A stretch of 64,000 nt of DNA from Thermaerobacter subterraneus DSM 13965 (lineage in GTDB: Bacteria > Bacillota > Sulfobacillia > Thermaerobacterales > Thermaerobacteraceae), in NCBI RefSeq assembly GCF_000183545.2, contig NZ_JH976535.1, forward strand, positions 572,840 through 636,839. Reading direction: 5' to 3'. Position 1 is the stretch's first letter, and every line of letters begins with the position of its first letter. This document shows positions 2,979 to 31,396 of this stretch, piece by piece. The notes under the pieces were generated by a model. The model ran no database searches, was not told where the DNA came from, and saw nothing but the letters and a program-made list of their open reading frames with translations. The position numbers and the translations under genes are program-made.

Positions 2979-4598
2979 TCATGCCAGCCCCCGGAACCCT
3001 ACCGGCACGTCGGCCGACCACACCTCCGACCTCTCCAGCGCCCAGGCCGGGTACTCCTCGCCCAGGAGGAACCGGCGGGCATACAGGGCTGCCAGGTGGG
3101 CGTAGCGGTCGCCCGCGGTCTCGGCCAGCTTGTACAGCAGGCCCACCTGGGCGGCGTCGGCCAGCCGGGCGGTGGCATCCTTGGCGTACCACTGGGCTTC
3201 CTCGGGCTCGCTGCCGGCCAGCCGGACCAGGGTGCCCTCGATGACCTCGCGGGCGGTCCGGGCCTCGGGCGTGCCGGCCTTCTCCAACATGGCGATGAAC
3301 TCGGCCAGGAAGGCCTCGTGGGCCCGCTTCTTGTGCATGGCCTCCAGCAGGTCCAGGGCCTGGATGTTGCTGGGCCCCTCCCAGATGGGCGTGATCAGGG
3401 CCTCGCGGTGCCAGCGGGCCACGGCGTACTCCTCCAGGAACCCGAGCCCGCCGAAGAGCTCCATGGCCAGCCGCGTCACCTCGGCAGCGTGATCGGCGGT
3501 GCGGTTCTTGGCCAGGTGGGAGAGGAACCGGGCGTAATGGTAGCGGGACGTGTAGGGCGGTAACTCGTCCCACGCCTTCTCGAAGAGGTCGGCGGCGTGG
3601 AAGCCCAGCACCAGGCCGCCGGCGATGCGCACGGCCATGTCGGTTAGGTCCCGGCGAATCAGCGGGTGGTCCACCAGCTGCCGGCCGAAGGACCGGCGGC
3701 GCCGCACCCGCTCCAGCACCTCCAGGTGCGCCTTGCGGGCGATGCCCATGCCGGCGATGGCGTTGGCCAGCCGGGAGACCGTGAGGACCTCGAGGGTGTA
3801 GTAGATCCCCTTCTCCGCCTCGCCCACCAGGAAGGCCTCGCTGCCGCGGAAATCCACCTCACCCGAGGGGACGGCGCGGGTGGCGCTCTTGTCCTTGAGC
3901 CGGCGGACGTGGTAGTTCAGCTCGCCGGCCCGGTTCATCCGGGGCACGAGGAAGAGGGCCAGCCCCTTGGGCCCGGCGGGCGCCCCTTCCGGCCGAGCGG
4001 TGACGACGGCCACATCGGTCAGGCCGGCGCCGCTGCAGAAGTACTTCTCGCCGTCGAGGCGCCAGGCGTCGCCGTCACGGGTGGCCTGGAGGGTGTTGGC
4101 GCCCAGGTCGCTGCCGCCCTGGACCTCGGTCATCCAGGTGGCGCCCCAGAACTCGCCGCGGAGCAGCTTGGCCTTCCACTCGGCGAACTCCGGAGCGTAC
4201 TTATGAATCACATAGGCGGTCTGGTTGGTGATGGTCAGGATGCAGTAGATCCCCGGGTCGGCCACCAGGTAACCCAGGGCGTAGTGGTGGTGCCAGCTCC
4301 CGCCCTCGTAGGGTGGCCGGTTCATGGGCGCCAGCTCCCGGAGGAGCGCCTGCTGGGCCGGTGACAGGCGCACCCGGTCCACCCGGTGGCCGTCCAGGTC
4401 GTGCATGACCAGCACCGGCGGGGCGTCGTGGTCCACGTGGTAGGCGACCTCGTAGACCTCCTTCCCCGCCAGGGCGCCGAAGCGGCGCAGCTCGTCCTCA
4501 TGGGCGGTGAAACCCGGCCAGTAATGGGCCAACACGTGGCGCAGGTCCGGGTCCCGCTCCCAGTGGTTCTGCTCGTAGGCGTAGGACTGGTACCTCAC
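2979..4598 (-). CDS. AidB-like acyl-CoA dehydrogenase
   Basis: A 539-aa flavoprotein of the acyl-CoA dehydrogenase superfamily, catalysing alpha,beta-dehydrogenation of acyl-CoA with FAD. The segment TWMTEVQGGSDLGANT (about residues 154-169) and the long C-terminal extension are like the AidB subgroup rather than short 380-aa dehydrogenases. WEGPSNIQ (about 406-413) supplies the glutamate at the usual catalytic-base position. It lies 3 bases after the tetR stop and upstream of the acyl-CoA ligase, in one operon. The context favours a role in fatty-acid beta-oxidation over the alkylation-response role named for E. coli AidB. The residue region GGSWHHHYALGY is intact and no lesion is seen. Confidence 0.88.
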   Translation of the reverse strand: MRYQSYAYEQNHWERDPDLRHVLAHYWPGFTAHEDELRRFGALAGKEVYEVAYHVDHDAPPVLVMHDLDGHRVDRVRLSPAQQALLRELAPMNRPPYEGGSWHHHYALGYLVADPGIYCILTITNQTAYVIHKYAPEFAEWKAKLLRGEFWGATWMTEVQGGSDLGANTLQATRDGDAWRLDGEKYFCSGAGLTDVAVVTARPEGAPAGPKGLALFLVPRMNRAGELNYHVRRLKDKSATRAVPSGEVDFRGSEAFLVGEAEKGIYYTLEVLTVSRLANAIAGMGIARKAHLEVLERVRRRRSFGRQLVDHPLIRRDLTDMAVRIAGGLVLGFHAADLFEKAWDELPPYTSRYHYARFLSHLAKNRTADHAAEVTRLAMELFGGLGFLEEYAVARWHREALITPIWEGPSNIQALDLLEAMHKKRAHEAFLAEFIAMLEKAGTPEARTAREVIEGTLVRLAGSEPEEAQWYAKDATARLADAAQVGLLYKLAETAGDRYAHLAALYARRFLLGEEYPAWALERSEVWSADVPVGFRGLA

Positions 4599-4601
4599 GG
4601 T

Positions 4602-5345
4602 TCATCCCCCCTGCCGATCCGGCCGGGCGGCCGGCCGTCCGTCGCCGCCGCCATGCGAGCCAGCGACCGCGCCCGTCGCCCGTTCGCCCGTCGAACGGGC
4701 CGATGAACCGGCGGGCGCGCCGGCTGCCCTGATGCGCTCGATAAAGGCCAGTAACTGGGCCTCGCGGTCCGCCCTCGTCCATTCCGACAGCTCCAGCACG
4801 GCGAACAGGTTGAAGGCGGCGCCCAGGCTCATCATCTGCCAGGCGATGGCGCGGGCCGGGACGTCGCGGCGGATTTCCCCCCGCTCCTGCCCCTGCCGGG
4901 CGACGTCTTCCAGGTACCGGGCGTACTGGCGGTAACTCTCGGCCAGGAACTGGCGGATCTCCGGGTCGCTGTCCTCGGAGACGGCCTTGAAGAACACCTT
5001 CAGGTCCTCGCTGTTCCGGTCCACGAGATCCAGATAGTCCTGCCCGATCCGCCGCAGGCAGGCCAGGCTCGACGTCTCGGACCGGCGGATGGCGTTCCAG
5101 CGCCCAAGGATCCGCCGGTTCACGTTCTCCAGCACCGCCAGGAAGAGGTGCTTCTTGGACGGGTAATAGCGGTAGATGAGCGGCTCCGAGACGCCCGCCT
5201 CGGCGGCGATCTCCGCCGTGGTGCTCGACCGGTAATTGGACCGGGCGAAGACCGACTTGGCCGTGAGGAGGATCTGCTCGGGCCGTTTCGTTCTCGCTCG
5301 CCGCGGGCTGATCTTCGACTCACCCCCCGTCCGGCTCGGACGCAA
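4602..5345 (-). CDS. TetR/AcrR family transcriptional regulator
   Basis: A 247-aa regulator with an N-terminal helix-turn-helix typical of TetR proteins (TTAEIAAEAGVSEPLIYRYY, then SKKHLF) and a helical ligand-binding C-terminus. It heads the operon with acyl-CoA dehydrogenase and acyl-CoA ligase and probably represses it, relieved by acyl-CoA, as FadR-type TetR proteins do (inference). The in-frame start is a TTG at 5345 without a good ribosome site. An ATG at 5370 with AGGGGA in front is one base out of frame, separated by a run of six G (coding strand), so the true N-terminus is uncertain. The last ~30 residues are low-complexity. Confidence 0.88.
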   Translation of the reverse strand: MRPSRTGGESKISPRRARTKRPEQILLTAKSVFARSNYRSSTTAEIAAEAGVSEPLIYRYYPSKKHLFLAVLENVNRRILGRWNAIRRSETSSLACLRRIGQDYLDLVDRNSEDLKVFFKAVSEDSDPEIRQFLAESYRQYARYLEDVARQGQERGEIRRDVPARAIAWQMMSLGAAFNLFAVLELSEWTRADREAQLLAFIERIRAAGAPAGSSARSTGERATGAVAGSHGGGDGRPAARPDRQGG

Positions 5346-8712: not shown

Positions 8713-10995
8713 ATGATTGAAAAACTAATCGCCTTACGCGGAATTGGTCTGCTACATAATGCAGTTCCACAGCGAGCCGTAACCCTCAAGCCCATAACTG
8801 CCATATACGCCGAAAACGGACGAGGCAAGTCAACGCTAGCCTCTGTGCTTCGTGCCTTCTCGTGTGGCGACGCTACCGCCATCAACGCAAGGACAACCAT
8901 AGGCGGACAAAATGGACCGACTGTACACTTACGGCTGAACGGCAGAAACTATCAGTTTCGCGATGGCCAATGGACAGCCAGTTACGACAAAATCCTCGTC
9001 TTTGACTCGGAATTCGTTGATAAGAATGTATGTTCCGGAAGCCGAATTGAGCCCGCCCACCGTGAAAATCTTTTGGAATTCGCCCTAGGCGAAACTGGTG
9101 TTCGGCATAAAAGAACTATTGACAAGATTATTGAAAAGATCAGGCATATACAAAACACTCTTCGAGAATTGACGGCGGAAATTGCGCGACATTCAGGGCC
9201 ATACCAAGTAAGTGAGTTCGTGCAGCTCCAACCCGAACCCGATATAGAAAGTCGTTTGAAAGAGTTGAAGCAACGTTTGGCTGACGCAAAGCGAGTTGAT
9301 GACTTCCTGCATCGCCCGGTTCCACGGCAGCTACAGATGCCAGAGTTTGATATTGAAACGGTATCTACGATTCTCGGAAAGTCGTTGGAAAGCGTTGATA
9401 ATGATGTAGAGGAAATTGTGAAGGTACATATAGCGCGCCGCCTCGGAGGCCACGGTGAGCAATGGTTACGTGAAGGTTTGGCGTACCTGCGGCATGGAGA
9501 CGAGTGCCCGTTTTGCGGACAGGGACTACACGGGATTACTCTCGTAGAGGCATACAAGGTCTATTTTAACGCCGCCTATGAGGCATTGAAAAGGCAGATA
9601 GAAGTTGCACTGCAGGAGGTTCAGAAGACTTTTAGTCACGAGAACTGGAGTGCAATTAGCGAGATTTTTCAACTGAATGAACTGGCAGGCAGAATGTGGA
9701 GTGATCGCTTCGATTGTAATTTCGCCAAGATGGTGGATATAAATGCCCTACGGCGTACATGGGACGCTCTTCGTGATAATGCAATTGAGCTGTTACGACA
9801 GAAACTAGCCGCTCCGTTACGTCAACTTCATGCCCAAGAATTGGTTGCTGATGTAAAGACGAAATATCTGGAAATGCGAAAGCAGGTTGACGCATATAAC
9901 GAGGCAATAATTCGGGTTGTTAGGGACATCGAGGCGCTCCAAAGTTCTCTAAAGGTGGAGAATATGGACCGCCTCGAAAATGATATCGAATGCTTAGAAG
10001 CAGCACAGAGGCGATTGCTGCCGGAAGTCTCTAGGGTGTGTCAACGCTATCAAAGATTCGAAAATGCAAAAAGGTTACTTGAGCGTTGCAAGGATGAACT
10101 GCGTGAGCAGCTTCACGACTACACAGAACAATTGTTGGCCACATACAGGGACACTATCAACAACCTGCTGGACCGGTTTGGTGCTAATTTCTCGATTGTG
10201 GAAATCGGGGTGAGGCATACTGGCGGTAGGGCTCGCACTGAGTATCGACTGAGAGTCTTGGGTGAGACTATTCCAGTTGTCTCGCCGGGAGGAAGGAGTG
10301 ATGTTCCTTCCTTAGTTACTACGTTGAGTGAAGGAGATAAGCGGACGCTTGCTCTTGCGTTCTTCTTGGCGAGGGTAACCTTGGAGCAAAGTATGGAGGA
10401 TTGCATCATTGTAATTGATGATCCGGTTTCAAGTCTTGATATGGGGCGTCGACGTGCTACGCGAGATGCTTTGCTGAAGGTTGCCACACGGTGTTCTCAA
10501 TTGATTGTGCTATCACACGATGCTCTATTCTTACGCGATGCGTTGGAAAAAATTGCTGATGATGGAATATGGACGTGCCTACAGTTGACGAGGCGTGGTG
10601 ACTACAGTGTTCTAGAAGGGTGCGACATTCATCGCATATGTCGAGACGATTATTATCGGAGTTATGAATTGCTCTTGAATTATCTGACATCGGGTCCAAA
10701 TGGAAATGAAGCCGAGGTCGCTAGGACTATTCGGATATACTTAGAACATAACCTGCGGAATCGATATCCGGTTGAGCTGGAAGGGGCTAAGAACCTTGGT
10801 AAGATGATCGAACGCATTCGGAACGATTTGTCTAGGTTTGGGCAGCTGGCGGCCAGACTAGATGATCTCGTGCAACTTAATGACTTTTGTAGTCCGTTCC
10901 ACCATGGTACTGACGACCGGCCGCCTGATCCGACCGACAGTGAGCTACGCCCGATGGTAAGGCTAGCATTGGAAATTGGCAGGGGCGAGAGATAA
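8713..10995 (+). CDS. AAA_13-type ATPase with zinc-hook motif (PrrC/RloC-like)
   Basis: A 760-aa SMC/Rad50-style ATPase. Seen: a degenerate Walker A AENGRGKST (residues 33-41), a long coiled-coil region, a zinc-hook-like CPFCG (Cys265, Cys268), an ABC signature LSEGDKRTLAL (about 538), Walker B IIVIDDPVSSLD (about 569) and an LSHD switch. About 170 residues follow, ending in NDFCSPFHHG. This architecture is that of the AAA_13 family, which includes the anticodon nucleases PrrC and RloC and other defence ATPases. The C-terminal domain has R674-x3-E678 and His730/731, reminiscent of the PrrC R-x3-E...H triad but with wider spacing, so nuclease activity is only a guess. ATG with GAGGTGA upstream. 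Codon use is clearly AT-richer than in neighbours, a sign of transfer. Confidence 0.8.
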   Translation: MIEKLIALRGIGLLHNAVPQRAVTLKPITAIYAENGRGKSTLASVLRAFSCGDATAINARTTIGGQNGPTVHLRLNGRNYQFRDGQWTASYDKILVFDSEFVDKNVCSGSRIEPAHRENLLEFALGETGVRHKRTIDKIIEKIRHIQNTLRELTAEIARHSGPYQVSEFVQLQPEPDIESRLKELKQRLADAKRVDDFLHRPVPRQLQMPEFDIETVSTILGKSLESVDNDVEEIVKVHIARRLGGHGEQWLREGLAYLRHGDECPFCGQGLHGITLVEAYKVYFNAAYEALKRQIEVALQEVQKTFSHENWSAISEIFQLNELAGRMWSDRFDCNFAKMVDINALRRTWDALRDNAIELLRQKLAAPLRQLHAQELVADVKTKYLEMRKQVDAYNEAIIRVVRDIEALQSSLKVENMDRLENDIECLEAAQRRLLPEVSRVCQRYQRFENAKRLLERCKDELREQLHDYTEQLLATYRDTINNLLDRFGANFSIVEIGVRHTGGRARTEYRLRVLGETIPVVSPGGRSDVPSLVTTLSEGDKRTLALAFFLARVTLEQSMEDCIIVIDDPVSSLDMGRRRATRDALLKVATRCSQLIVLSHDALFLRDALEKIADDGIWTCLQLTRRGDYSVLEGCDIHRICRDDYYRSYELLLNYLTSGPNGNEAEVARTIRIYLEHNLRNRYPVELEGAKNLGKMIERIRNDLSRFGQLAARLDDLVQLNDFCSPFHHGTDDRPPDPTDSELRPMVRLALEIGRGER

Positions 10996-14382: not shown

Positions 14383-15936
14383 CAGCCCGTGTTGGTAATG
14401 CCGTTGGCCCTCGAAGTCGCTGGTCTTTGAAAACGTCAGACGGCCGCGCCCAGGCATGGGAGCGGTCGGTACCCCTTGCTCAGGAGGTGGCGATCGCCTC
14501 CATCCGGCGGGCAAGCGCGTGGTGGCGCCAGAGCTTCATGAGGTTGAAAGCGGTACAACTGAAGAGCCACTCGAAGCGGGCTTTCGACAGCCCACGGAGA
14601 AGCAGCTGCCGGAGTCCCATAGCTTCTTTGAGGTGCCCAATGACCGGCTCCACCGAGCACTGGCGGAGTTTGTAGCGGCGGCGCCCCCGAACGGTTCGCA
14701 GTTTGCGGCGCATCCGGTCCCTGGCCGTCATGTGTTTTGGCATCCGCCCCCGGGGTGGCTGGCGTTGGCGCCATTCCGTATGACGGATCTTATCCGGCGG
14801 GATGAAGGCTTCGACACCCCGCTCCTCCAGAGCCTGGAGGTTGGCGTCGCTGTAATAACCGGCGTCGGCGGAAAGCTCCCTGGGGTGGCACCCGGTGTTG
14901 ACCTCGACTTGTTGCAGCTGGCCCAGGAGATGAGGCGCGTCGGCGGCCTGGTTCGTCAGGTCCGCCGCCACGATGACGTGCGTTTCCGCGTCCACGGCCA
15001 GTTGGGCGTTGTAACCCTGGATGAAGGCCTTGTCGGCGCTGCGCAGGATCCGCGACTCGGGGTCGGTGAAGTTGATTTGATCCTTGTCGGCCGGGAGGGG
15101 GTCGGACGGGGCTTGCTTGCGGCGGGAGCGGCGCCCCTTCTTCGCCGCCTCCGCCTCCCGCGCCGCTTCCTTGGCTTCGGCCTCGGCCCGGGCCCGCTGC
15201 TCCAGCCGGGCCTTGGCCGCCTGAATCGCCTTCAGCCGCTTTTCCGCCGTGGCCAGCTCGGGAGGCAGGCGCCAGCCACTGTCGGAGCCGTGTTCGTCAT
15301 CCTCCGCCCGGTCGTTGGCCTCAACCTCTTCCAAGTAGCGCCGGATCTCCTCCGTCAGGCGCCGTTCCTCCTCCTTCATCCGGCCGTAGCTCATGGCGCT
15401 GTGCTTGGAGGCGTAGGCCTTGAGCTTGGTCCCGTCCACCGCCACGTGCCGGAGCTTCACCAGCCCCGCCTCCTGGGCCAGGCGAACCGACTGGACAAAC
15501 AGCCGGGCCAGGGCTTCATGGTGCCGGCGCCGGAAATTCGACAGCGTCCAGTGGTCGGGCTGCTGATTCGCCGCAAGCACCCGGAAGCCCACGTCTTCGT
15601 ACAGGGCCCGCTCCAGGCGCCGTGAGGAGCGGATGCCCCGCATGTACGCGTACACCCACACCTTGACCATCATGCGCGGTTCGTAAGGGGGCTGGCCCCG
15701 GCGCTCGGTGTAGTCGTTGTAGACCGCTGACAGGTCGAACTGGTCGACCACCTGGCTGATGAAATGGACCGGGTGATCCTCCGGGAGCCACTCGTCCAGC
15801 GCAGGAGGCAGGATCATGAGCTGATGGGGTTGGTAGTCCCGAAACTTCTTCCTGTTCATAGTCTTTCTTCTTCGGCATGTCAGCCGAAAAATACTGCCCG
15901 ATCGCCTGGCTGATGCAGCGTTATTCACACGGGCTG
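14383..15936 (-). mobile_element. IS1182-family element (type A) inside the NSS gene
   Basis: The inverted ends cagcccgtgt...taa match each other, and both sides carry the palindrome CTAG (14379-14382 and 15937-15940), a 4-bp target duplication. Removing the element plus one CTAG restores the NSS frame exactly. Fragments of the same element occur at 58740-58872 and 60962-61026. Confidence 0.88.
14480..15859 (-). CDS. IS1182-family transposase (type A)
   Basis: A 459-aa transposase. The N-terminal DUF772-type region (LPPALDEWLPEDHPVHFI, then RGIRSSRRLERALYEDVGFR and ANQQPDHWTLSNFRRRH), a VAVDGTKLKAYAS block with the first Asp, ELSADAGYYSDAN and a C-terminal CSVEPVIGHLKEAMGLR are characteristic of IS1182. 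Between them is a charged, Ala/Arg-rich coiled segment. The true start is ATG 15859; the open frame continues upstream only because it fuses with the NSS gene. It appears intact. Confidence 0.92.
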   Translation of the reverse strand: MNRKKFRDYQPHQLMILPPALDEWLPEDHPVHFISQVVDQFDLSAVYNDYTERRGQPPYEPRMMVKVWVYAYMRGIRSSRRLERALYEDVGFRVLAANQQPDHWTLSNFRRRHHEALARLFVQSVRLAQEAGLVKLRHVAVDGTKLKAYASKHSAMSYGRMKEEERRLTEEIRRYLEEVEANDRAEDDEHGSDSGWRLPPELATAEKRLKAIQAAKARLEQRARAEAEAKEAAREAEAAKKGRRSRRKQAPSDPLPADKDQINFTDPESRILRSADKAFIQGYNAQLAVDAETHVIVAADLTNQAADAPHLLGQLQQVEVNTGCHPRELSADAGYYSDANLQALEERGVEAFIPPDKIRHTEWRQRQPPRGRMPKHMTARDRMRRKLRTVRGRRRYKLRQCSVEPVIGHLKEAMGLRQLLLRGLSKARFEWLFSCTAFNLMKLWRHHALARRMEAIATS

Positions 15937-16771
15937 CTAGCACGCTGAAGACCGCCAGCCCCGCCAGGAAGTCGAAGCTGGAATTGGCGAAGACGGTGAT
16001 GAAGGCGCTGTTCACCAGGTCCGACTTCCGGGGCAGATAGCTGGCGTAGGCGATCATCACGCCCACCGCCAGGGTGGCCGAGAAAAACACCTGACCGTAA
16101 GCCGCCACCCAGACCTGCGGGTCCAGGATCTTGGAGAAGTCCGGCTACAGGAAGAAGTTGAGGCCGTGGGCTGCGCCGGGCAAGGTGAGGCCCCGGATGG
16201 CGATGATCACCATCAGGATCCCCAGCGTGGGGGTCATCCACCGGCAGGCCGCCTCGATACCGGCGGAGATGCCCTTGATCGAGTAATAGTAGTTCACCCA
16301 CCAGATGACGGCGGTGGCGACGAGCAGGTGCCACCGGATCCCCTGGAAGTCCCACGGACCGGCCGACACGCCCAGGAATTGGCGGCTGAAGAAGGCACCG
16401 GGATCCGCACCCCAGGCCTGGGTGAAGGAGTAGATCATGTAATTCAGCGCCCAGCCGATGATCACGCTGTAATACGTGACCACCACGACCGGGATCATGA
16501 CCTGCCACCAGCCGATCCACTCCCACTTCCTAGAGAGGCGGCCAAAGGCGCTGATGGCAGCCGCCCGCATCTTGTGGCCGTAGCCGAATTCCAGGATCAT
16601 CAGCGGCACGCCGGCGGTGAGAAGGGCGACGAAGTACGGAAGAAGGAAGGCGCCGCCGCCGTTCTCATAGGCCATGAAGGGAAACCGCCAGAAGTTGCCC
16701 AGCCCCACCGCGGCACCGACGGTGGACAAGATGAAGCCGGCGCGGGATCGCCATTGATCACGCGCTTCCAC

Positions 16772-19410: not shown

Positions 19411-21030
19411 GAGCCTGTTGCACCGACCCTGAGAGATCGGGCCTAGTGGGAACGTACCGGGTCGATTCGCTCATGTCACATGGGCTGACGGTCAGGACTG
19501 TGTAGGCCGGCGGCCCGATCGTGACCCTTCTACGCCAAGCCCGCCACCGTACATTCAAAGGGCAAGGTGGCGGATCGCTCCCTGACCCTCCGCCAGAGCT
19601 TCAGCAAGTTGTGGGTCAAGCAAAGCAGCTTCCACTCGCTGTCACACGCCGCCAGACCCCGACGGAGGAACCGGTCGGCGCCTCGCACGGCCTTGATCTG
19701 CCCGAACACCGGCTCCACGGTCTGGCTGCGCTTGGCGTAGATCGCCTGCCCTCGCCGGGTCCGCAGCTTGCGTTCCATCCGCTCCCGCAGGCTCAGCCCC
19801 TTGGGGATGCGGCCTCGCGGAGGGGGTGTGTCCTTCCAGGCTTGGCGCTGCTTCCACTCTTTACTCGTCGCCAGGAACAGTTCCGGCCCATCCGCCGGTG
19901 CCTGCTTCACGTTCGCCTCGCTCCAGTACCCCGCGTCGGCCACGACAGCCCGGATGGGCTCGTCCACGCCCGCGGCCCGCAGGTTGGCTTGCGCCTGCTG
20001 GAGCATCGGGTGCAGTTGGCCCACGTCGTTGGCGTCCTGCGTCACCGCCGCGGCCACGATGAGTTGGTCTCCGTGACCACCGCCTGGGCGTTGTACCCTT
20101 GCACAAAGCCCTGCCGGGTCTTGAGGATCCGGCTGTCCGGATCCGTGATGTTGGCCTTGGCTGCCGGATCCACCGAGGCATCCGGCGCCTTCGGCTTCCG
20201 CCCCTGCCGCTTCTTGCCGGTCGCCTGCTCCTGGGCTTTCCGCTCCTCGATGCGGGCCTGCTGCCGGGCCGCTTCCCGGGCCGCCTCGTCCTCCAGCCGC
20301 CGCTTGCATGCCTTCAGCCGCTCCAGCCGGCTCTGGCGGGAGCGCAGTTCCTCCGGCAACTCATCCCCACGGCGCCCGGGGCCGTACCGCTCATCTTCTT
20401 CCCGGTCCGTGGCCTCCGCTTCCCGGAGCATCTTCTCCACTTCCTGGCGAATCGCATCGTAGGTGCGGTTGGCCGCCAGCGAGGCGTTGGCCTTGACTTT
20501 CGTCCCGTCCAGTGCCACCACGCCCACCTTCCCCAGCCCCGCCTCCCGGCACAGCCGCAGCACCTGGGTGAACAGCGCGGCCAGCTCCCGTGCATGGCGC
20601 TGGCGGAAGCGGGCGATGGTCACGTGATCCGGCTTCTGGTTGGCGGTGATCACCCGGAAGGCCACGTCCTCGAGGCACAACCGCTCGATCCGCCGGCTCG
20701 ACCGCTCGCCGACGCAGTAGGCGTACAGCAGGAGCGTCACCATCAGGGTTGGGTCGTAACTCTCTCCGCCCCAACCGTCGGCGCGGTACTTCTCGTAAAA
20801 GGCCCGCAGGTCCATCTGCTCGACGGCGTCGATCAGAAACCAGGCCAGGTGGTCCTCGGGCAGCCCGTCGCGAAGGCTCGGTGGGAGCAGGTACAGTTGG
20901 TCACGGTTCACCGGGCGAAAGTTGTAGGCCATAGGGACACCTCGGGCGATGGCGAATGCGAACCAATGGCCTCACTTAAACCCACGTGGGTGCAATCCTG
21001 TGGAAATACCTGGGTTCGTGAAACAGGCTC
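19411..21030 (-). mobile_element. IS1182-family element (type B), copy 1
   Basis: It is bounded by gagcctgttgcac on the left and gtgaaacaggctc on the right. Length is 1,620 bases, one shorter than copies 2 and 3, which matches the single-base deletion in its transposase gene. No target duplication is evident. Confidence 0.88.
19530..20932 (-). pseudogene. IS1182-family transposase (type B), frameshifted copy
   Basis: Nearly identical to the 467-aa proteins at 24829-26232 and 59460-60863. It reads normally from MAYNFRPVNRDQLYLLPPSL to AVVTE, then one base is missing near 20069 (ggtctcc where the others have ggtcctcc or an equivalent in-frame codon). The rest (LIVAAAVTQDANDVGQLHPM onward) is in another frame. 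The copy should be inactive unless supplied in trans. Confidence 0.9.
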
Positions 21031-21452
21031 TACAGCCAGAGGTATAATTCAGGGAATGAGAAACACTCCCTCGGGGCCATGGGTCCGCAACTCCAGCACG
21101 TACGCCATCATGGTATCCTTACAGAGCCGGTGGTGGTTGACGGGATGGCACAGGCGCGCCTGCGGATGCAGCCTGAGGTCATTGGGGTGTTGGGTCAGCT
21201 AGCGATTGCGCCAACAGTAACTGGAAGCAATGTGGGCTATCGAGGAGCGCGACGGCTCGGTACTCCTTTCCTCAGGTTGCTCCATCGAGAACGTCCGCCG
21301 GGATTGGTTTGTTTTTCCTAACCAGGCTATATCCTGGTGCCAATACTCGATAACGAGGTGTCACTGCAAATCGTCATACGATGCGGCGGACAGGCCCGAC
21401 TCTCACCGAATATGTCACTACCTCCTATGACACAATCTATGGAGGTTCAAGT
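21031..21452. other. Leader region of the methylase fusion gene
   Basis: About 420 bases without a recognisable gene. GC falls towards the methylase start, and the last 100 bases, AT-richer, should hold its promoter. A small palindrome (caggcgcgcctg) lies near 21150. Confidence 0.45.
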
Positions 21453-24173
21453 ATGACGAACCTGAAGCACAGTCTTACGGCACAACAGATCGAAGCCCAC
21501 CCGTTGGTTCGTGAAGCTGTGGCGCGAGGTTTCATTAAATTCTCCAATAACCGAATCACTTATCATCTCAACCAAAAGAAAGAGTATAATTGGTTTGACC
21601 CTGAAGAATGGGTCCGGTGTCACGCCATTGCCTGGTTGATCATTGAAAAGGGTTATCCTGCTAACCGCATCCGAACAGAAGTTGCTGTTCCTCGCCGTGT
21701 ACCAGAAGACCACGCCGACATTGTGGTTTTCGAGGATGACCGCTGTCGTATTCCTTACCTGGTAGTTGAAACAAAAGCTGCTGGGCAAGGTCCTGCGGGG
21801 CGACGGCAGGGAATAGAACAGCTTTTCGGTAACGCCAATTCTCTCCGTGCACCCCTGGGATTATACGATGAATATACGGAGTCATTCTTCTATGATATTG
21901 CTAATTATCCACCAACTGAGCGTAATGACAATCTAAAGGGGTCGCGTGACGCTGTTCCGGATCAATACGGTCGCGTGCCTAAGTACACGTACATTGCGGG
22001 TTCTACGGTAGACATTAGGCCAGTGGATCCAGGGAGTCTCGAGACCAGAATTCGACGGGCTCATTCAATAATATGGGCCGGTGGCAAACGTGATCCCCTC
22101 ACCGCTTTTGATGAATGGAGCAAGCTTCTTTTTGCGAAGGTTCAGGATGAACGTACTACACCGAACGGAGAGCCTCGTAAGTTCCAAGTTGGCACGAACG
22201 AGACATCTGCAGCTGTTGCCAGCCGTATCCACAAGCTATTCGAAGATGCGTGTCAAGCAGATCCCACGATCTTTCCGGAAGGCGTCCGTATTGAGCTTTC
22301 TGATCGTAAGATTGTTGAAGTTGTTCGTGTGCTCCAAGACATTAGCATTACAGCTACGCACGTGGATAGCATTGGCAAGGCCTTTGAGAGCTTCTTCGGT
22401 TCAATTTTCCGAGGAGAGCTCGGACAATACTTTACGATGCGCCAGTTAGCTCGTTTCATTGTGGCGATGCTCGACATCGACCATAGGGATTACGTTATCG
22501 ATCCCACTGCCGGAAGCGGTGGATTTCTTCTTGAGGTCCTTTTGCAGGTCTGGCACAAAATTGATAAGGACTTTGCGGGTAGATCCGACTTGGAACGCCT
22601 CAAGATTGACTTTGCCTTACATAAGGTATATGGCATTGAGATACATCCGGTGCTAGCGCGCATTTGCAAGATCAATCTCCTTCTTCACCACGATGGCCAC
22701 ACGAACATTGAAGGAGACCGCAGCTGTTTAGATTCAATCTTCAATCTACCGCGTCTGAACCCGCCGACAGCAGGCCGATTTACTCGAGTTGTTGGTAATC
22801 CCCCTTTTGGGGATACAGTGAAGGAGGGAGACGAGGATCTCCTTGGACAAAATTCGTTATCAAATTTCCACGTTGCTGAGGGACGCACTCAGGTGCCCTC
22901 AGAACACGTTATTTTGGAACGCGCTATTCAGTTCTTGGCTGACGGAGGCAGGCTTGGCCTAATTATTCCCGACGGTATTCTGAATAACCCTGGCGATCAC
23001 TCGAATTGTCCACAGGTGAGACGTTTCCTTGTTATGAACGGTGTAATTGAAGCCATTGTATCCTTGCCAGACTATGCTTTTCGTAAGTCAGGTGCACAGA
23101 ACAAGACGTCGATCCTCTTTTTTAGGAAGTTTGAGCCGCATGAGCGTGTTGCCTTTAAAAATGCGTATGATGCGGCCCGAGAGGCCGGTAAGAATGAGGA
23201 AGAGGCGTTAATCGCCGCGTTGGAGGCCCTAAACTATCCTGTGTTCCTTGCTGAGGCCAATTACATAGGATATACGGCTACAGGTGTCCCTTCCGAGCGC
23301 AACGATCTATATCGTAGTTGCGAATATGGGATACTCAATGAAGATCAATCTGGGACAATACTTGGCGAATATCGGCGATTTCGTTCGAAGCCGGATTCGT
23401 ATGACGGACATCGGTTACCTGATTGTATGGCGGCAAGCATTGTAGACATCTGGCGCGCGCATGAGAGCCACAGGCTCGATCCCAAGTACCATCTATTTAA
23501 GCGCGAAGAACGGACGATTACACCAAAGGGGTGGATTCGACGTCGTGTAGCGGAGGTCATGCGACGACGCGAGGAAATAGTCCGTCCTCAGGATTCGCCC
23601 TATGAGCCTGTAGTCGTTATGACCATTTCCCAAACGGGTGAAATTCGCGCGCGAGAGGCGGGAAAGGGTAATAATCCTCCGGAATGGCTGGGCATGTATT
23701 TTGAAGATAGCTCTTCCGTATGGTATCGCGCACGGAAAGGAGACGTAGTTTTCTCGGCTATTGATCTTTGGAAGGGATGTATTGCAGTGGTTCCCGAAGA
23801 GTTTGATGGGGCACTTGTGACGAAAGAGTTTCCGATATACGAAATCATTGACGAGAGATTGGATCCAGAATTCCTTTCAACGCTCTTGCGTACTAGATAC
23901 TATCAACGGGCGTTTCGGGCAATTACTACGGGCCACAGTAATCGACGGCGCACTCAAACATCAGATTTCGAGGCACTTGAAATTTGCTTTCCACCGGATC
24001 GTCGGTCGCAGACCGAGATTATTGCCGATATACTGAGAGCGCGGCAGTTGCAAAGAGAAGCCAACAACCTGCTTCGACAGGCCATGCTGCGATTTAGCGA
24101 CCTTATCGATGGACGGGGAGATATGGAATACATCGTGCCCGTCGATGACGATGAAAATGATGAGAACGAATGA
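21453..24173 (+). CDS. Single-chain restriction-modification protein (nuclease-N6 methylase-specificity fusion)
   Basis: A 906-aa protein. The N-terminus is HsdR_N-like with a PD-(D/E)xK pattern: Asp89 in HADIVVFED, then Glu106-x-Lys108 in LVVETKA. The centre is an N6-adenine methylase with DPTAGSGGFL (about 350-359) and NPPFG (about 449). The last ~200 residues look like an HsdS target-recognition unit (RKGDVVFSAIDLWKGCIAVV, then TTGHSNRRRTQTSDFEALEI). Together this resembles a type IIG-like enzyme that cleaves and methylates with one chain. Start ATG 21453 has GGAGGT nine bases upstream. Codon use is AT-rich compared with the IS elements and operons around it, indicating transfer. No helicase (HsdR motor) gene is nearby. 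Confidence 0.85.
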   Translation: MTNLKHSLTAQQIEAHPLVREAVARGFIKFSNNRITYHLNQKKEYNWFDPEEWVRCHAIAWLIIEKGYPANRIRTEVAVPRRVPEDHADIVVFEDDRCRIPYLVVETKAAGQGPAGRRQGIEQLFGNANSLRAPLGLYDEYTESFFYDIANYPPTERNDNLKGSRDAVPDQYGRVPKYTYIAGSTVDIRPVDPGSLETRIRRAHSIIWAGGKRDPLTAFDEWSKLLFAKVQDERTTPNGEPRKFQVGTNETSAAVASRIHKLFEDACQADPTIFPEGVRIELSDRKIVEVVRVLQDISITATHVDSIGKAFESFFGSIFRGELGQYFTMRQLARFIVAMLDIDHRDYVIDPTAGSGGFLLEVLLQVWHKIDKDFAGRSDLERLKIDFALHKVYGIEIHPVLARICKINLLLHHDGHTNIEGDRSCLDSIFNLPRLNPPTAGRFTRVVGNPPFGDTVKEGDEDLLGQNSLSNFHVAEGRTQVPSEHVILERAIQFLADGGRLGLIIPDGILNNPGDHSNCPQVRRFLVMNGVIEAIVSLPDYAFRKSGAQNKTSILFFRKFEPHERVAFKNAYDAAREAGKNEEEALIAALEALNYPVFLAEANYIGYTATGVPSERNDLYRSCEYGILNEDQSGTILGEYRRFRSKPDSYDGHRLPDCMAASIVDIWRAHESHRLDPKYHLFKREERTITPKGWIRRRVAEVMRRREEIVRPQDSPYEPVVVMTISQTGEIRAREAGKGNNPPEWLGMYFEDSSSVWYRARKGDVVFSAIDLWKGCIAVVPEEFDGALVTKEFPIYEIIDERLDPEFLSTLLRTRYYQRAFRAITTGHSNRRRTQTSDFEALEICFPPDRRSQTEIIADILRARQLQREANNLLRQAMLRFSDLIDGRGDMEYIVPVDDDENDENE

Positions 24174-24730: not shown

Positions 24731-24828
24731 GAGCCTGTTTCACGAACCCAGGTATTTCCACAGGATTGCACCCACGTGGGTTTAAGTGAGGCCATTGGTT
24801 CGCATTCGCCATCGCCCGAGGTGTCCCT

Positions 24829-26232
24829 ATGGCCTACAACTTTCGCCCGGTGAACCGTGACCAACTGTACCTGCTCCCACCGAGCCTTCGCGACGGGCTG
24901 CCCGAGGACCACCTGGCCTGGTTTCTGATCGACGCCGTCGAGCAGATGGACCTGCGGGCGTTTCGAAGCAAGTACCGCGCCGACGGATGGGGCGGGGAGA
25001 GCTACGACCCCGCCATGATGGTGACGCTCCTGCTGTACGCCTACTGCGTCGGCGAGCGGTCCAGCCGGCGGATCGAGCGACTGTGCCTCGAGGACGTGGC
25101 CTTCCGGGTGATCACCGCCAACCAGAAGCCGGATCACGTGACCATTGCCCGCTTCCGCCAGCGCCATGCACGGGAGCTGGCCGCGCTGTTCACGCAAGTG
25201 CTGCGGCTGTGCCGCGAGGCGGGGCTGGGGAAGGTCGGCGTGGTGGCACTGGACGGGACGAAAGTCAAGGCCAACGCCTCGCTGGCGGCCAACCGAACCT
25301 ACGATGCGATTCGCCAGGAAGTGGAGAAGATGCTCCGGGAGGCGGAGGCCACGGACCGGGAAGAAGATGAGCGGTACGGCTCCGGGCGTCGTGGGGATGA
25401 GTTGCCGGAGGAACTGCGCTCCCGCCAGAGCCGGCTGGAGCGGCTGAAGGCATGCAAGCGGCGGCTGGAGGACGAGGCGGCCCGGGAAGCGGCCCGGCAG
25501 CAGGCCCGCATCGAGGAGCGGAAAGCCCAGGAGCAGGCGACCGGCAAGAAGCGGCGGGGGCGCAAGCCGAAGGCGCCGGATCCCTCGGTGGATCCGGCGG
25601 CGAAGGCCAACATCACGGATCCGGACAGCCGGATCATGAAGACCCGGCAGGGCTTTGTGCAAGGGTACAACGCCCAGGCGGTGGTGACCGAAGACCAGCT
25701 CATCGTGGCCGCGGCGGTGACGCAGGACGCCAACGACGTGGGCCAACTGCACCCGATGCTCCAGCAGGCGCAAGCCAACCTGCGGGCCGCGGGCGTGGAC
25801 AAGCCCATCCGGGCCGTCGTCGCCGACGCGGGGTCCTGGAGCGAGGCGAACGTGAAGCAGGCACCGGCGGATGGGCCGGAACTGTTCCTGGCGACGAGTA
25901 AAGAGTGGAAGCAGCGCCAAGCCTGGAAGGACACACCCCCTCCGCGAGGCCGCATCCCCAAGGGGCTGAGCCTGCGGGAGCGGATGGAACGCAAGCTGCG
26001 GACCCGGCGAGGACAGGCGATCTACGCCAAGCGCAGCCAGACCGTGGAGCCGGTGTTCGGGCAGATCAAGACCGTGCGAGGCGCCGACCGGTTCCTCCGT
26101 CGGGGTCTGGCGGCGTGTGACAGCGAGTGGAAGCTGCTCTGCCTGACCCATAACTTGCTGAAGCTCTGGCGGAAGGTAACGAAGGGGTCCGCATCCTCAC
26201 CCTTTGGTTGGATGGCGGCCGCGTTGGCGTAG
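24829..26232 (+). CDS. IS1182-family transposase (type B), intact
   Basis: A 467-aa transposase. The N-terminal LPPSLRDGLPEDHLAWFLID and SSRRIERLCLEDVAFRVITA, VALDGTKVKANASLAANRTY with the first Asp, a charged coiled segment, a VVADAGSWSEANVKQ block (the sister copies have GYWSE) and the C-terminal SQTVEPVFGQIKTVRGADRF with the catalytic Glu are all present. The nested IS256 lies 23 bases after the stop codon, so the frame is complete and may still be active if the element's ends are. Confidence 0.92.
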   Translation: MAYNFRPVNRDQLYLLPPSLRDGLPEDHLAWFLIDAVEQMDLRAFRSKYRADGWGGESYDPAMMVTLLLYAYCVGERSSRRIERLCLEDVAFRVITANQKPDHVTIARFRQRHARELAALFTQVLRLCREAGLGKVGVVALDGTKVKANASLAANRTYDAIRQEVEKMLREAEATDREEDERYGSGRRGDELPEELRSRQSRLERLKACKRRLEDEAAREAARQQARIEERKAQEQATGKKRRGRKPKAPDPSVDPAAKANITDPDSRIMKTRQGFVQGYNAQAVVTEDQLIVAAAVTQDANDVGQLHPMLQQAQANLRAAGVDKPIRAVVADAGSWSEANVKQAPADGPELFLATSKEWKQRQAWKDTPPPRGRIPKGLSLRERMERKLRTRRGQAIYAKRSQTVEPVFGQIKTVRGADRFLRRGLAACDSEWKLLCLTHNLLKLWRKVTKGSASSPFGWMAAALA

Positions 26233-26255
26233 AAGGGTAACGACCGGGCCGCCGG

Positions 26256-28045: not shown

Positions 28046-31000
28046 TCAATCCTCCGCCTCTTCCTCCCGGAGAACACTCGCTATCCCCTTGAGTGCTTCC
28101 CGGGGCCTCTCGTCCCCAACGGTCGTTTGCGCATCCTGCACCCGATTGAGGGCTTCCACCCGGATCGATTTCTCTAAACCTGTGACAAGAGCCCTGCGCT
28201 TTTCAAGCAGCTTGGCGAACCACTCAAGCTCCGTCTGGGAAAACCGCGTAAGGGCGTTCGGAAGCCAGGTCACCAGCAGATGCTTCAGGTCCTCGACACC
28301 CACTTCCTCAGCGCCCTCCACGACCACCTCTCCGACGGCTCCTAGGAACTTCTCCGCGCCCCAGTCCCTGTACTCTACGAGAAGCCTCGAGACGCTCCGG
28401 GCCATCCGCGCGGAAAGGTTTTTCCGCGCGTCTGCGGTCAGGAACTCTAGATAGGCCCGAATGGCCGTCGGGTCGTACGCCGCTTCATCCTCAAGGAGGG
28501 CCGTCGCACCCTCCTCAAGGGCGTCAGCGAGCCTGTGGTCCAGTTCAACCGGGAAGCCCCGTCCCCGAAGCTCTCGGAGGCGGGCCAGTGCGTCCGAGCC
28601 ACAACCCTCTTTCAGCAGGTGTGACCAGTCACTCTTTTGCAGCCCCTTCAGCCCTTCGCCTAAGAAATGTATAAACGCCTCCGCCGGGCCGTCCGCGGCC
28701 GCCCTGAGGATTCTGCGGTAAGCAGGGAGGAGGTTCAGGGCAAACCCCCTTGACTGGGCCGCTTCGACGATTTCATCCTGCCGCCTCCGGCACATCGCTT
28801 CGAAGGCCTCCTCCCCCAGGAGCTCAGAAAGATCCTTGCCATGTTCCAGCAGGATCTCCGGGGAGAACACCTCAGGGTAGGCCTCCTTGAGGTGGTCGAG
28901 GAGGGTGGCCACAAGTTCTTTTGCTTGGGGATTCCTTTTGACAGCCTTAATGACGCTCTGAACGGAGAAGTCGGTTTCCCTAGATTCCGAGAGCTCTGCC
29001 AAAAGTTCAGCCATGCCCTGGAGATCGACCCCTTTGGGGTTTTGGAGAAAGCCGGCGTATCTCTGGGCCCCCTGGCTCGCTCCCCCTCCTAGGGGCTGCG
29101 ATTGGCCGGTGGGATTATAGATCAGGAGGGGCAAGAGGAGGGTCCCTAGGGTCTTCCCGTCATTCGCATAGGCCAGGTGGTGCAAAAGAAACCAACTGGT
29201 GGCCAGGTCTCTCAGGGCATTCCTGGCCTCCTCGCTGATGGGCTCCAATTGGAGCAGGGCGTAGATTGCAGCCCGGACCTCCTCATCGGTGTAGCGGTTG
29301 CCTGTGGCCAGGCGGCCCCGGAGGCTGTTGACCAGACCCTTCCAGTCCCACCCCTGATCGATGTAGGACAGGGCGCGGGTTGCCAGCGCCTCGGTCATCC
29401 TAAACTCCCCTCGCCCAACGCGGGCGACCAGCTCGCCAAGCACTTCCGGCGGCTTCCGGGGTGTAAAGGCCTTCTGTACCTCGTCCTCTAGCTCCCAGAA
29501 GTCCAGGGCACTGAGGACAAGGATCCAGTCGGCGGGTTCCTGGACCGGGAACCGGAAATCTTCGGGTACACCCAGGTCGAGTTCCCGCTTGACCCGGTCT
29601 AGGAAATCCGCCAAGCCCTTGGCAGCATCCTTGATAACCTCGTTTCCGGAAGGAGCCTCCGCCCCTCGCAGGATGACCCCGATAAGCCTGCACCGCTCTT
29701 CCGCGCCCGGGGCCGAGGCAACGAGCACCATTAGACCCTGGACCACCTCATCGTCCCCCATCTTCCACCCCCCGGCCGAGGTGGCCCTTGAGCGGAGGAG
29801 GCCCAGGGCCTGTCTCTGATCCTCCTCCGGCAGAAGGCCCCCTACCTCCTTGATGGCAAGCGCCGCCTTAGCAAGAAGCTCGGGGGCCTTCTCTGCCCAC
29901 TCCCCCGCCTCCTCCAAGGCCTCGAGGACCAAGGTACCCAAGGCCTCCGGCCGGACCTGCCGGGCAGTCTCCCTGAGGACGGGGCTCCCCGGGGCCTCGA
30001 GGCCCTTCCGGATCTCCTCTAAGAAGAGAACCTGGAGGGCCTTGTTCGGCTCGACGTTAAAGTGCTGGGCCAGCAGATAATCCTTCCACTTCTCCTCTTC
30101 GGGGAAGAGCTTTTTAACCTCCGCCTCCCTCTTGGAGAGGGCCACGCGTGGGTTTTTGGCGAGCTCCTCCTTAAGAGCCACATACAGAGCCTGCATGGGC
30201 AGGGGAATCGCGTCCTGCCAGATGCGGTGCTGACTTCCCACCAGGTTCACGAACTGCTTAAGCTCTCGGGGAGCCGGCTGGCCATCGCCCCTAAGGACAA
30301 GGTTCCTGTAGACCCTGTAGACCGCATACAACTCCTCCTGGTGGTGTCGGGGAAAGGCCTCGCGGAGGCGCTTGAAGAGGAAGGATTTCCAGTCCGACAG
30401 TACCGGCGGGGGAACATGAAGCCTGGTCTGAAAGAACTTGGATATAAAGACCTCCGTGAGATTTTCTCCGTCGCTCTGCACATTTCCCCAGAGGTGGCAA
30501 ATGGCCGAGGGGTCGAAGGGCACGATGAGCCAGATCTTTTCGCTCCAGGCAGCCCCACGAACATCAAAGAAGGTGCGCATCGTGGCCCAGACGGAACGGG
30601 CCTGTTCCGCGGGGAGGCGGTCCAGGTTATCCACGACGATGACTAGGCGTCGGTCATCGGTCACGGCTCTGTCCAGAATGTCCTTGAACCTTGCCTCGAA
30701 CTCCACGGAGGTAGGCTCGGGGGTGCGAAGGGTGGAAGTCCTGGTTTCGGTGCGGTTCTGACCAACCAGGCTTGGGAACTCAAATCTCCCCTCAGCCCTG
30801 AGACCACGGATCATGAAGTATAAGGCAACGAAGAACGGTGAAAGAAGGGCCGCGACGCCAAGGACGGAAAACCAGAGAGGAGCTTGGTATATCGGCTGGC
30901 TGCTCAGTAGGGCCGTACCCAGGGGGATCCCCAGGGTGAGAAAGAACCCGATCCAATAGCCCTCACGGGTCATGACCGGAGAGGTCTGAGAATAAACGCT

Positions 31001-31396
31001 CTCCTTCCGGCAAGCCAGCTCGTCCATTTGGTTGTTGATCTGCTCCAGGGCCTTTCCCTTAACCCAGCCAGTCTCCGCGAGGAAGGCTGCGAGCCGCTCG
31101 AGAAACGACCGCCGAAGCGGGTCGCCCTCGTGGCTCCACGCGTCGAAGACAAAAACCCGCACCTTATCCGAGTTCCGTTCTACTGCCTGCTGGAAGAGCC
31201 TGACCACGGTGGACTTCCCGCTGCCCCATCCCCCGAGTAGGGCCACCGCCTTTCCGCCACTTGAGTTCAGGACAAGATCCACCAACGCCCGCGCTGTTAA
31301 CTCGTGACCTCCGCCCAAAGCGTCCTCCGCGCTCGGATCGTCTGCGAGTAGGTAGGTTGGGCAGATTTCTCGCTTCCTTGCAATTTCAGCTTCCAT
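28046..31396 (-). CDS. KAP-family P-loop NTPase, membrane-anchored
   Basis: A 1,116-aa protein. Walker A GGWGSGKST (residues 55-63), the KAP signature FVFDAWSHEGDPLRRSFLERL, two membrane helices (about 148-165 and 174-197) inserted within the ATPase as usual for KAP proteins, and Walker B LVIVVDNLDRL (251-261). The C-terminal ~700 residues are helical and show no known domain. KAP NTPases include the phage-exclusion protein PifA, and they commonly occur in mobile or defence regions. This one stands alone between IS elements. A defence role is inference. ATG 31396 is the first in-frame start; composition is closer to the host than for the other two defence candidates. Confidence 0.85.
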   Translation of the reverse strand: MEAEIARKREICPTYLLADDPSAEDALGGGHELTARALVDLVLNSSGGKAVALLGGWGSGKSTVVRLFQQAVERNSDKVRVFVFDAWSHEGDPLRRSFLERLAAFLAETGWVKGKALEQINNQMDELACRKESVYSQTSPVMTREGYWIGFFLTLGIPLGTALLSSQPIYQAPLWFSVLGVAALLSPFFVALYFMIRGLRAEGRFEFPSLVGQNRTETRTSTLRTPEPTSVEFEARFKDILDRAVTDDRRLVIVVDNLDRLPAEQARSVWATMRTFFDVRGAAWSEKIWLIVPFDPSAICHLWGNVQSDGENLTEVFISKFFQTRLHVPPPVLSDWKSFLFKRLREAFPRHHQEELYAVYRVYRNLVLRGDGQPAPRELKQFVNLVGSQHRIWQDAIPLPMQALYVALKEELAKNPRVALSKREAEVKKLFPEEEKWKDYLLAQHFNVEPNKALQVLFLEEIRKGLEAPGSPVLRETARQVRPEALGTLVLEALEEAGEWAEKAPELLAKAALAIKEVGGLLPEEDQRQALGLLRSRATSAGGWKMGDDEVVQGLMVLVASAPGAEERCRLIGVILRGAEAPSGNEVIKDAAKGLADFLDRVKRELDLGVPEDFRFPVQEPADWILVLSALDFWELEDEVQKAFTPRKPPEVLGELVARVGRGEFRMTEALATRALSYIDQGWDWKGLVNSLRGRLATGNRYTDEEVRAAIYALLQLEPISEEARNALRDLATSWFLLHHLAYANDGKTLGTLLLPLLIYNPTGQSQPLGGGASQGAQRYAGFLQNPKGVDLQGMAELLAELSESRETDFSVQSVIKAVKRNPQAKELVATLLDHLKEAYPEVFSPEILLEHGKDLSELLGEEAFEAMCRRRQDEIVEAAQSRGFALNLLPAYRRILRAAADGPAEAFIHFLGEGLKGLQKSDWSHLLKEGCGSDALARLRELRGRGFPVELDHRLADALEEGATALLEDEAAYDPTAIRAYLEFLTADARKNLSARMARSVSRLLVEYRDWGAEKFLGAVGEVVVEGAEEVGVEDLKHLLVTWLPNALTRFSQTELEWFAKLLEKRRALVTGLEKSIRVEALNRVQDAQTTVGDERPREALKGIASVLREEEAED

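What the first reader, a model, noticed from the sequence alone, without database searches (positions are those of the whole stretch)
21453..24173. Nuclease, N6 methylase and specificity unit in one 906-residue chain
The order HsdR_N-like PD-(D/E)xK (D89, E106, K108), methylase (DPTAGSGGF, NPPFG) and HsdS-like C-terminus makes a compact restriction-modification enzyme without a helicase motor. It is related to type I parts but organised like type IIG.
Basis: partly seen in the sequence, partly recalled or inferred. Interest (0 to 1): 0.5.

Follow-up and report, generated by a model that had tools for sequence, protein, structure and literature searches.

The report
One-chain type IIG restriction-modification enzyme
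This gene most likely makes a single protein that both tags its own cell's DNA and cuts untagged foreign DNA; the design is already known, but this version seems to have moved between distant bacteria while keeping the same target sequence.

Summary
ORF 21453-24173 (+) encodes 906 aa: an HsdR_N-type PD-(D/E)xK domain, a gamma-class N6-adenine methylase and a half-HsdS (one target-recognition domain, TRD, plus one helix), with no helicase hit. The closest solved relative is RM.BsaXI (type IIB). Four BsaXI residues needed for cleavage align with E76, D89, E106 and K108, identical in 12 of 12 intact one-chain proteins (this one and 11 relatives). Nuclease-domain dN/dS is 0-0.04 in six of seven close pairs and 0.22 in the other. 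The host has no hsdR match and no second N6_Mtase gene. I read it as a stand-alone one-chain type IIG enzyme organised like HaeIV (R~M~one TRD), probably a homodimer on a symmetric split site: a known kind.

Less ordinary: relatives at 49-70% identity lie in records from several phyla (8 of 9 genome-collection hits are MAGs) and in two viral contigs. Unlike related two-gene systems, whose presumed S genes diverge fast, the recognition part here is about as conserved as the catalytic part, which predicts one shared recognition sequence. Activity, oligomer and target sequence are untested.

The parts
21453..24173 (+). One-chain restriction-modification gene (R~M~half-S), 906 aa
21441..21445 (+). 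GGAGG, likely ribosome-binding site 7 nt before ATG 21453
   Evidence: sequence; by eye
21600..21896 (+). Nuclease domain HSDR_N_2 (residues 50-148) with E76, D89, E106, K108, Q123
   Evidence: strand and helix order in the model
22365..23195 (+). N6-adenine methylase domain (residues 305-581), motifs DPTAGSGGF and NPPFG
23511..24110 (+). Half-HsdS: one TRD (about residues 687-850) followed by one long helix (858-886)
19507..21030 (-). Left copy of a transposase element, inverted relative to the right copy; its reading frame is split (20042-20932 and 19530-20309). Context, not part of the enzyme
   Evidence: named from its likeness to the right copy
24731..26255 (+). Right copy of the transposase element, intact DDE transposase ORF 24829-26232 (467 aa). 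Context, not part of the enzyme

Best explanation
A stand-alone one-chain type IIG restriction-modification enzyme of the BsaXI/HaeIV sort, acquired horizontally. Shown here: homology, domain order, conservation of the catalytic residues, and absence of an hsdR match or a second N6_Mtase gene in the host genome. Inferred: two chains pair through the C-terminal helix, so that two identical TRDs read a symmetric, split recognition sequence; the methylase puts m6A on both strands; unmodified sites are cut at a fixed distance by the HsdR_N-type nuclease with Mg2+ and without ATP. Also inferred: the members of this one-chain family share one recognition sequence.
For: RM.BsaXI is the best PDB match by sequence (E 6e-28), by profile (E 1e-89 over profile 11-677) and by fold (8w0p_A Z 29.9, 609 aligned, rmsd 8.6, model 8-647). 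BsaXI E73/D90/E105/K107, whose alanine mutants lost cleavage (PMC11997821, passages), align with E76/D89/E106/K108 (residues counted by me). These are identical in 12 of 12 intact one-chain proteins, the window's own included. Nuclease-domain dN/dS: 0.02-0.04 in 5 of 7 close pairs, 0 in one, 0.22 in one (six of the seven pairs are among four near-identical Clostridia copies). The C-terminal model covers one half of HsdS 5ybb_D (model 38-239 on 5-199 of 390, Z 14.9, 191 aligned, rmsd 6.2). The host genome (99.96% complete) has 0 hsdR matches (TIGR00348; the control search rings in 10 of 14 genomes) and only this one N6_Mtase gene (PF02384). In the flanks of 13 loci, up to 4 kb but as little as 0.2-0.9 kb on some sides, a motif search for other methylases gave one hit, a DPPW in L022 in a frame that overlaps other genes. 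TRD conservation against a control. HaeIV precedent: PMC3874165, passages and section 40.
Against: No activity, methylome or oligomer data. The motif QxxxY, with Y in 56 of 76 aligned rows of the wider set, reads QxxxN in 12 of 12 here, so the nuclease is not standard in every respect. Some more distant viral relatives lack the full site: of 65 rows, 55 read D-E-K and 49 read E-D-E-K (a rough automatic alignment). Dimerisation is inferred from the single TRD and the helix only. In PMC11997821 (section 29) all modelled single-chain type IIB enzymes but one carry two TRDs, so the one-TRD form is the less usual one among characterised enzymes.
Confidence: 0.75

Rival explanations
1. MmeI-like mode: a monomer binds an asymmetric site, methylates one strand only, and cuts after two molecules meet.
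For: One RM and one TRD per chain, and no second N6_Mtase gene in the host genome. PMC3874165 section 41 (read) describes MmeI-family enzymes as lone-strand modifiers without accompanying MTases.
Against: MmeI_Mtase Pfam score is below cut-off (20.3 against 27). The TRD matches HsdS halves best, and BsaXI is a much closer RM relative than MmeI (E 1e-89 against 6.5e-4).
Confidence: 0.2
2. Orphan or regulatory methylase with a dead or repurposed N-terminal domain.
For: A related M~S protein without a nuclease domain exists (Thermus L040). Some viral relatives have altered nuclease residues.
Against: E76/D89/E106/K108 in 12 of 12 intact one-chain proteins and low dN/dS in the nuclease domain in six of seven close pairs.
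Confidence: 0.08
3. Part of a larger defence system (MADS- or BREX-like) rather than a stand-alone enzyme.
For: Sub-threshold hits to MAD2 (205 bits) and to PglX/BrxX.
Against: Scores lie far below the NCBIfam cut-offs (205 against 720; 20.5 against 400). The flanks of 13 loci, compared by blastn, share no common gene; blastn would miss a partner that has diverged.
Confidence: 0.05

Closest known systems
RM.BsaXI (type IIB), PDB 8w0p/8w2p/8w2q
   Same: PD-(D/E)xK nuclease, helical connector and gamma m6A methylase in the same order; the four cleavage-essential residues align
   Different: BsaXI uses a separate two-TRD S subunit in an (RM)2S assembly; here one TRD is fused to the same chain. 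The BsaXI knob and paddle were not looked for
HaeIV (single-chain type IIG/IIB)
   Same: Organisation R~M~[one TRD], suggested to act as a homodimer on a symmetric site (PMC3874165)
   Different: HaeIV sequence not compared here; family membership untested
AloI, PpiI, TstI, CjeI
   Same: All functions in one chain, parts related to type I
   Different: AloI and CjeI are about 1250 aa with two TRDs; here 906 aa with one TRD
HSDR_N~N6_Mtase plus a second gene on plasmids and prophages (L034, L035, L037, L038, L039)
   Same: Same nuclease and methylase domains, 22-29% identity
   Different: Specificity apparently in a second gene (annotated S in 3 of these 5) that diverges much faster
Thermus thermophilus plasmid N-6 DNA methylase WP_244455037.1 (L040)
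   Same: Methylase fused to one Methylase_S domain
   Different: No nuclease domain found

Membership tests
Type IIG (type IIC) R-M enzymes | N-terminal PD-(D/E)xK cleavage domain on a gamma-class MTase in one chain | tested here: met
Type IIG (type IIC) R-M enzymes | Recognition domain in the same chain (single-chain forms) | tested here: met
Type IIG (type IIC) R-M enzymes | No ATP-dependent motor | tested here: met
   No helicase family among 5 Pfam and 7 NCBIfam hits at E up to 1; 0 hsdR matches in the genome
Type IIG (type IIC) R-M enzymes | Cuts at a fixed distance from an unmodified site and methylates it | not testable with these tools
   needs enzyme assay and methylome
Type IIB (BsaXI/BcgI) | RM chain homologous to RM.BsaXI with its four catalytic residues | tested here: met
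Type IIB (BsaXI/BcgI) | Two-TRD specificity part (separate S or TRD1-CR1-TRD2-CR2 tail), as in most members | tested here: not met
   One TRD plus one CR-type helix
[quoted passage not shown]
   needs enzyme assay
HaeIV subtype | Sequence homology to HaeIV | not tested
   HaeIV sequence not fetched; only the review's description was read
Type I R-M | HsdR with SF2 motor and separate M and S chains | tested here: not met
   M and S are in one chain; 0 hsdR matches in the genome
MmeI family (type IIL) | MmeI_Mtase model above cut-off | tested here: not met
   20.3 bits against 27
MADS (MAD2) | NCBIfam MAD2 equivalog cut-off | tested here: not met
   205.3 bits against 720

The most novel reading that the evidence does not exclude
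This is a one-gene restriction-modification unit with a frozen specificity: a rare, mobile, HaeIV-like enzyme that has spread between distant phyla and phage contigs while every copy keeps the same recognition sequence, opposite to the fast specificity turnover of its two-gene relatives. A single-TRD homodimer, in which one domain must read both half-sites and serve both activities, could be why specificity does not drift.
Probability: 0.5. Interest if true: 0.5.

Novelty: new member of a known kind. Interest (0 to 1): 0.33.

Why it matters
The enzyme type is known, so the gene is mainly a sound annotation. The useful part is a clean prediction: methylomes of several unrelated hosts should show the same m6A motif, and in this host the gene is the only N6_Mtase-type candidate for it. 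If borne out, the family is a natural test of why some restriction enzymes diversify their targets and others do not, and of how a single gene can enter a new genome without killing it.

Tried and rejected
Start codon 21381 (930 aa): rejected in favour of 21453 because of the GGAGG and the relatives' N-termini. A conserved toxin-antitoxin partner: L021 and L022 have two small genes (ParD/ParE-like by eye, recalled, not searched) directly upstream, and L023 has an annotated RelB/DinJ antitoxin ending at the base before the start, but I recognised nothing of the kind among same-strand upstream ORFs of at least 50 aa printed for the other intact loci (by eye; L027 has only 212 bases upstream), so it does not look like a family trait. 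Pfam Methylase_S on the C-terminus: no hit. The TRD alone as query in viral contigs found only the two contigs already known; in plasmids it found 13 records, 1 covering at least 80% (Collinsella). In the phylum of the host, 2 of 398 genomes drawn matched at E up to 1e-60: the host itself and one at 35% identity. A paper search on MADS gave nothing usable. A paper search for at least 4 of type IIG, isoschizomers, horizontal transfer, target recognition domain and phyla gave 3 papers, of which I saw the listing only; I make no claim that the family is unpublished. REBASE was not available.

Rows dropped and limits: L031 (Granulicella MAG) is broken between frames and was left out of the 12. Eight of the nine genome-collection hits are MAG contigs, and the ninth is a 9.9 kb draft contig, so single host names could be binning errors; the window's genome and the Collinsella replicon are the firmest. 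Of 80 viral loci, 65 went into and 31 into the structure alignment A3 (42 rows). L023 was left out of both structure alignments because the tool admits only certain loci. In the two-gene control (40 loci: 35 viral, 5 plasmid or prophage) the downstream ORF of at least 350 aa was taken as S without a family test in most cases; for L035 and L037 the record does not call it S, and Pfam found nothing in the three that were scanned (L035, L037, L039). L041 (annotated methylase plus S) was not included. Pairs are not independent. In one search the list of fused relatives was made by length and included two loci (L083, L106) that have a second gene downstream, so that comparison is only rough.

Full report
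Observation. The frame 21453-24173 (+) is open and encodes 906 residues. A longer start at 21381 exists, but the ATG at 21453 is preceded by GGAGG at 21441-21445 and matches the N-termini of relatives. Pfam gives HSDR_N_2 at residues 50-148 (E 7e-12) and N6_Mtase at 305-581 (E 4e-30), with weaker Eco57I, UPF0020 and sub-threshold MmeI_Mtase hits, and no helicase. The host genome has one copy, no other N6_Mtase gene, and no match to the hsdR model (the same search rings in 10 of 14 control genomes).

Nuclease. With a profile of 10 sequences (A2), RM.BsaXI is the best of 29 PDB sequences (E 1e-89); with the single sequence it is also the best, of 13 (E 6e-28). BsaXI positions E73, D90, E105 and K107, whose alanine mutants lost cleavage (PMC11997821, passages read), fall on E76, D89, E106 and K108 of this protein; I counted the residues along the printed alignment. 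In the 12 intact one-chain proteins (the window's and 11 relatives, four of them near-identical Clostridia copies) all four are identical, as are E52 and Q123. In 65 more distant viral relatives aligned, 55 keep D-E-K and 49 keep E-D-E-K. In seven close pairs nuclease-domain dN/dS was 0.03, 0.22, 0.02, 0.03, 0.04, 0.04 and 0; the 0.22 comes from a pair with dS of only 0.09, and the first pair has dS above 1. The site therefore appears to be kept by selection. The RecB-like QxxxY motif of some Type I nucleases (PMC4454674, passages) reads Q123xxxN127 here in 12 of 12, whereas Y is found in 56 of 76 aligned rows of the wider set.

Methylase and specificity part. The motif order DPTAGSGGF then NPPF marks a gamma-class N6-adenine methylase (established knowledge, not a call). 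The AlphaFold2 model (mean pLDDT 85.4, pTM 0.77, 42 sequences) matches BsaXI over residues 8-647 (8w0p_A Z 29.9, rmsd 8.6, 609 aligned). The C-terminal 241 residues modelled alone (pLDDT 78.6, its first 33 residues mostly below 50) match HsdS chains: 5ybb_D Z 14.9 (191 aligned, rmsd 6.2, model 38-239 on chain 5-199 of 390), PacII S 7vru_C Z 14.3 (175 aligned, rmsd 3.0) and BsaXI S 8w0p_C Z 12.6 (208 aligned, rmsd 3.9). This is one TRD plus one conserved helix, that is, half of an S subunit. By sequence, a profile of this part finds two PDB sequences at E up to 0.01, both HsdS (E 5e-7 and 2e-6).

Relatives. One genome scan with two patterns from the nuclease and connector regions (not the TRD) gave 9 loci out of 50 pattern matches, all covering nearly the whole query at 56-70% identity, in records named Nostoc, Clostridia/Oscillospiraceae (5), Oceanicaulis, Planctomycetota and Granulicella. 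Eight of the nine are MAG contigs, so single host names may be wrong; the count is a lower bound. Two viral contigs (68-69%) and one 0.9 Mb Collinsella replicon (49%) complete the set of 13 with the window; L031 is broken. In L021 and L022 the gene lies between genes that I read by eye as terminase and portal. Gene GC is below flank GC in 10 of 11 loci measured, by more than 5 points in 9; in the window it is 49.4% against 65.2%, and two copies of one transposase element lie inverted on either side (19507-21030 and 24731-26255, 95-96% complementary). The Collinsella copy has an IS1595-family transposase gene upstream and an IS256-family one downstream. Flanks compared by blastn share nothing beyond the phage pair, about 200-340 bp upstream in four Clostridia loci, and matches of 32-74 bp. 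This looks like horizontal movement of a single gene.

Fixed specificity. In the one-chain family, at 60-70% identity of the RM part, the S part is 59-70% identical (mean 62.9, 29 pairs); in related two-gene systems at the same RM identity the presumed S is 24-56% (mean 40.8, 35 pairs). In the 70-90% bin it is 68-76% (7 pairs) against 27-59% (23 pairs); in the 50-60% bin 43-62% (22 pairs) against 22-50% (54 pairs), where the ranges overlap (58 of the 66 one-chain pairs fall in these bins). The TRD proper (700-850) is often more conserved than the RM part, e.g. 79 against 72% for the window and L021. Among other viral relatives taken as fused by length, the C-terminal part is often the less conserved one, e.g. 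56 against 29% and 77 against 49%, although some pairs keep it (88 against 87%) (rough). The simplest reading is that the members recognise one sequence. It is an inference from protein sequence, from pairs that are not independent.

Mechanism and filing. The review PMC3874165 (passages; sections 35, 40 and 41 read) describes type IIG enzymes as gamma-MTases with N-terminal cleavage domains and gives HaeIV as R~M~[one TRD], suggested to act as a homodimer on a symmetric site. With one TRD, a C-terminal helix and no second N6_Mtase in the genome, the same scheme is the best guess here. Against it stands that in PMC11997821 (section 29) all but one of the modelled single-chain type IIB enzymes have two TRDs. 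It works like a type IIG/IIB enzyme. As a member, it meets the sequence criteria of type IIG and fails the two-TRD feature of most type IIB enzymes. It is not type I, not MmeI-family by the Pfam cut-off, and not MAD2 by the NCBIfam cut-off. The novelty is a new member of a known kind, with the shared-specificity prediction as the point of interest.

Noticed in passing
8713-10995 (+): 760-aa AAA_13 ATPase with low GC3 (0.47) matching PADLOC candidate defence family PDC-S06 (E 3e-76): a second foreign-looking, defence-like gene about 10 kb away.
   Followed up: partly
28046-31396 (-): 1116-aa KAP-family NTPase near transposase genes; weak PifA/QatA-like hits over its N-terminal P-loop region only.
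   Followed up: no
14480-16108 (-): One ORF with a short piece of a sodium:neurotransmitter symporter (SNF) domain at its start, running in frame into a DDE transposase, which suggests an insertion that broke a transporter gene.
   Followed up: no
59460-60863 (-): A further DDE transposase ORF of 467 aa that begins like the one flanking the R-M gene.
   Followed up: no
L021:1354-2046, L022 about 4300-4953: Two small toxin-antitoxin-like genes (ParD/ParE by eye) between a terminase-like gene and the R-M gene; the second one's stop overlaps the R-M start by one base. In Collinsella L023 an annotated RelB/DinJ antitoxin abuts the R-M start.
   Followed up: partly
L025:5640-5985 and the upstream regions of L026, L027, L032: About 200-340 bp upstream conserved at about 80% or more, containing what looks by eye like the start of a divergent transposase helix-turn-helix gene.
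   Followed up: partly
L034-L041: Of eight plasmid or prophage relatives looked at, five (L034, L035, L037, L038, L039) have an HSDR_N~methylase gene followed directly by a second gene (annotated S in three); seven of the eight are annotated just as 'N-6 DNA methylase'. The D-E-K nuclease residues are present in 9 of 10 rows of alignment A2, which includes three one-chain proteins.
   Followed up: partly
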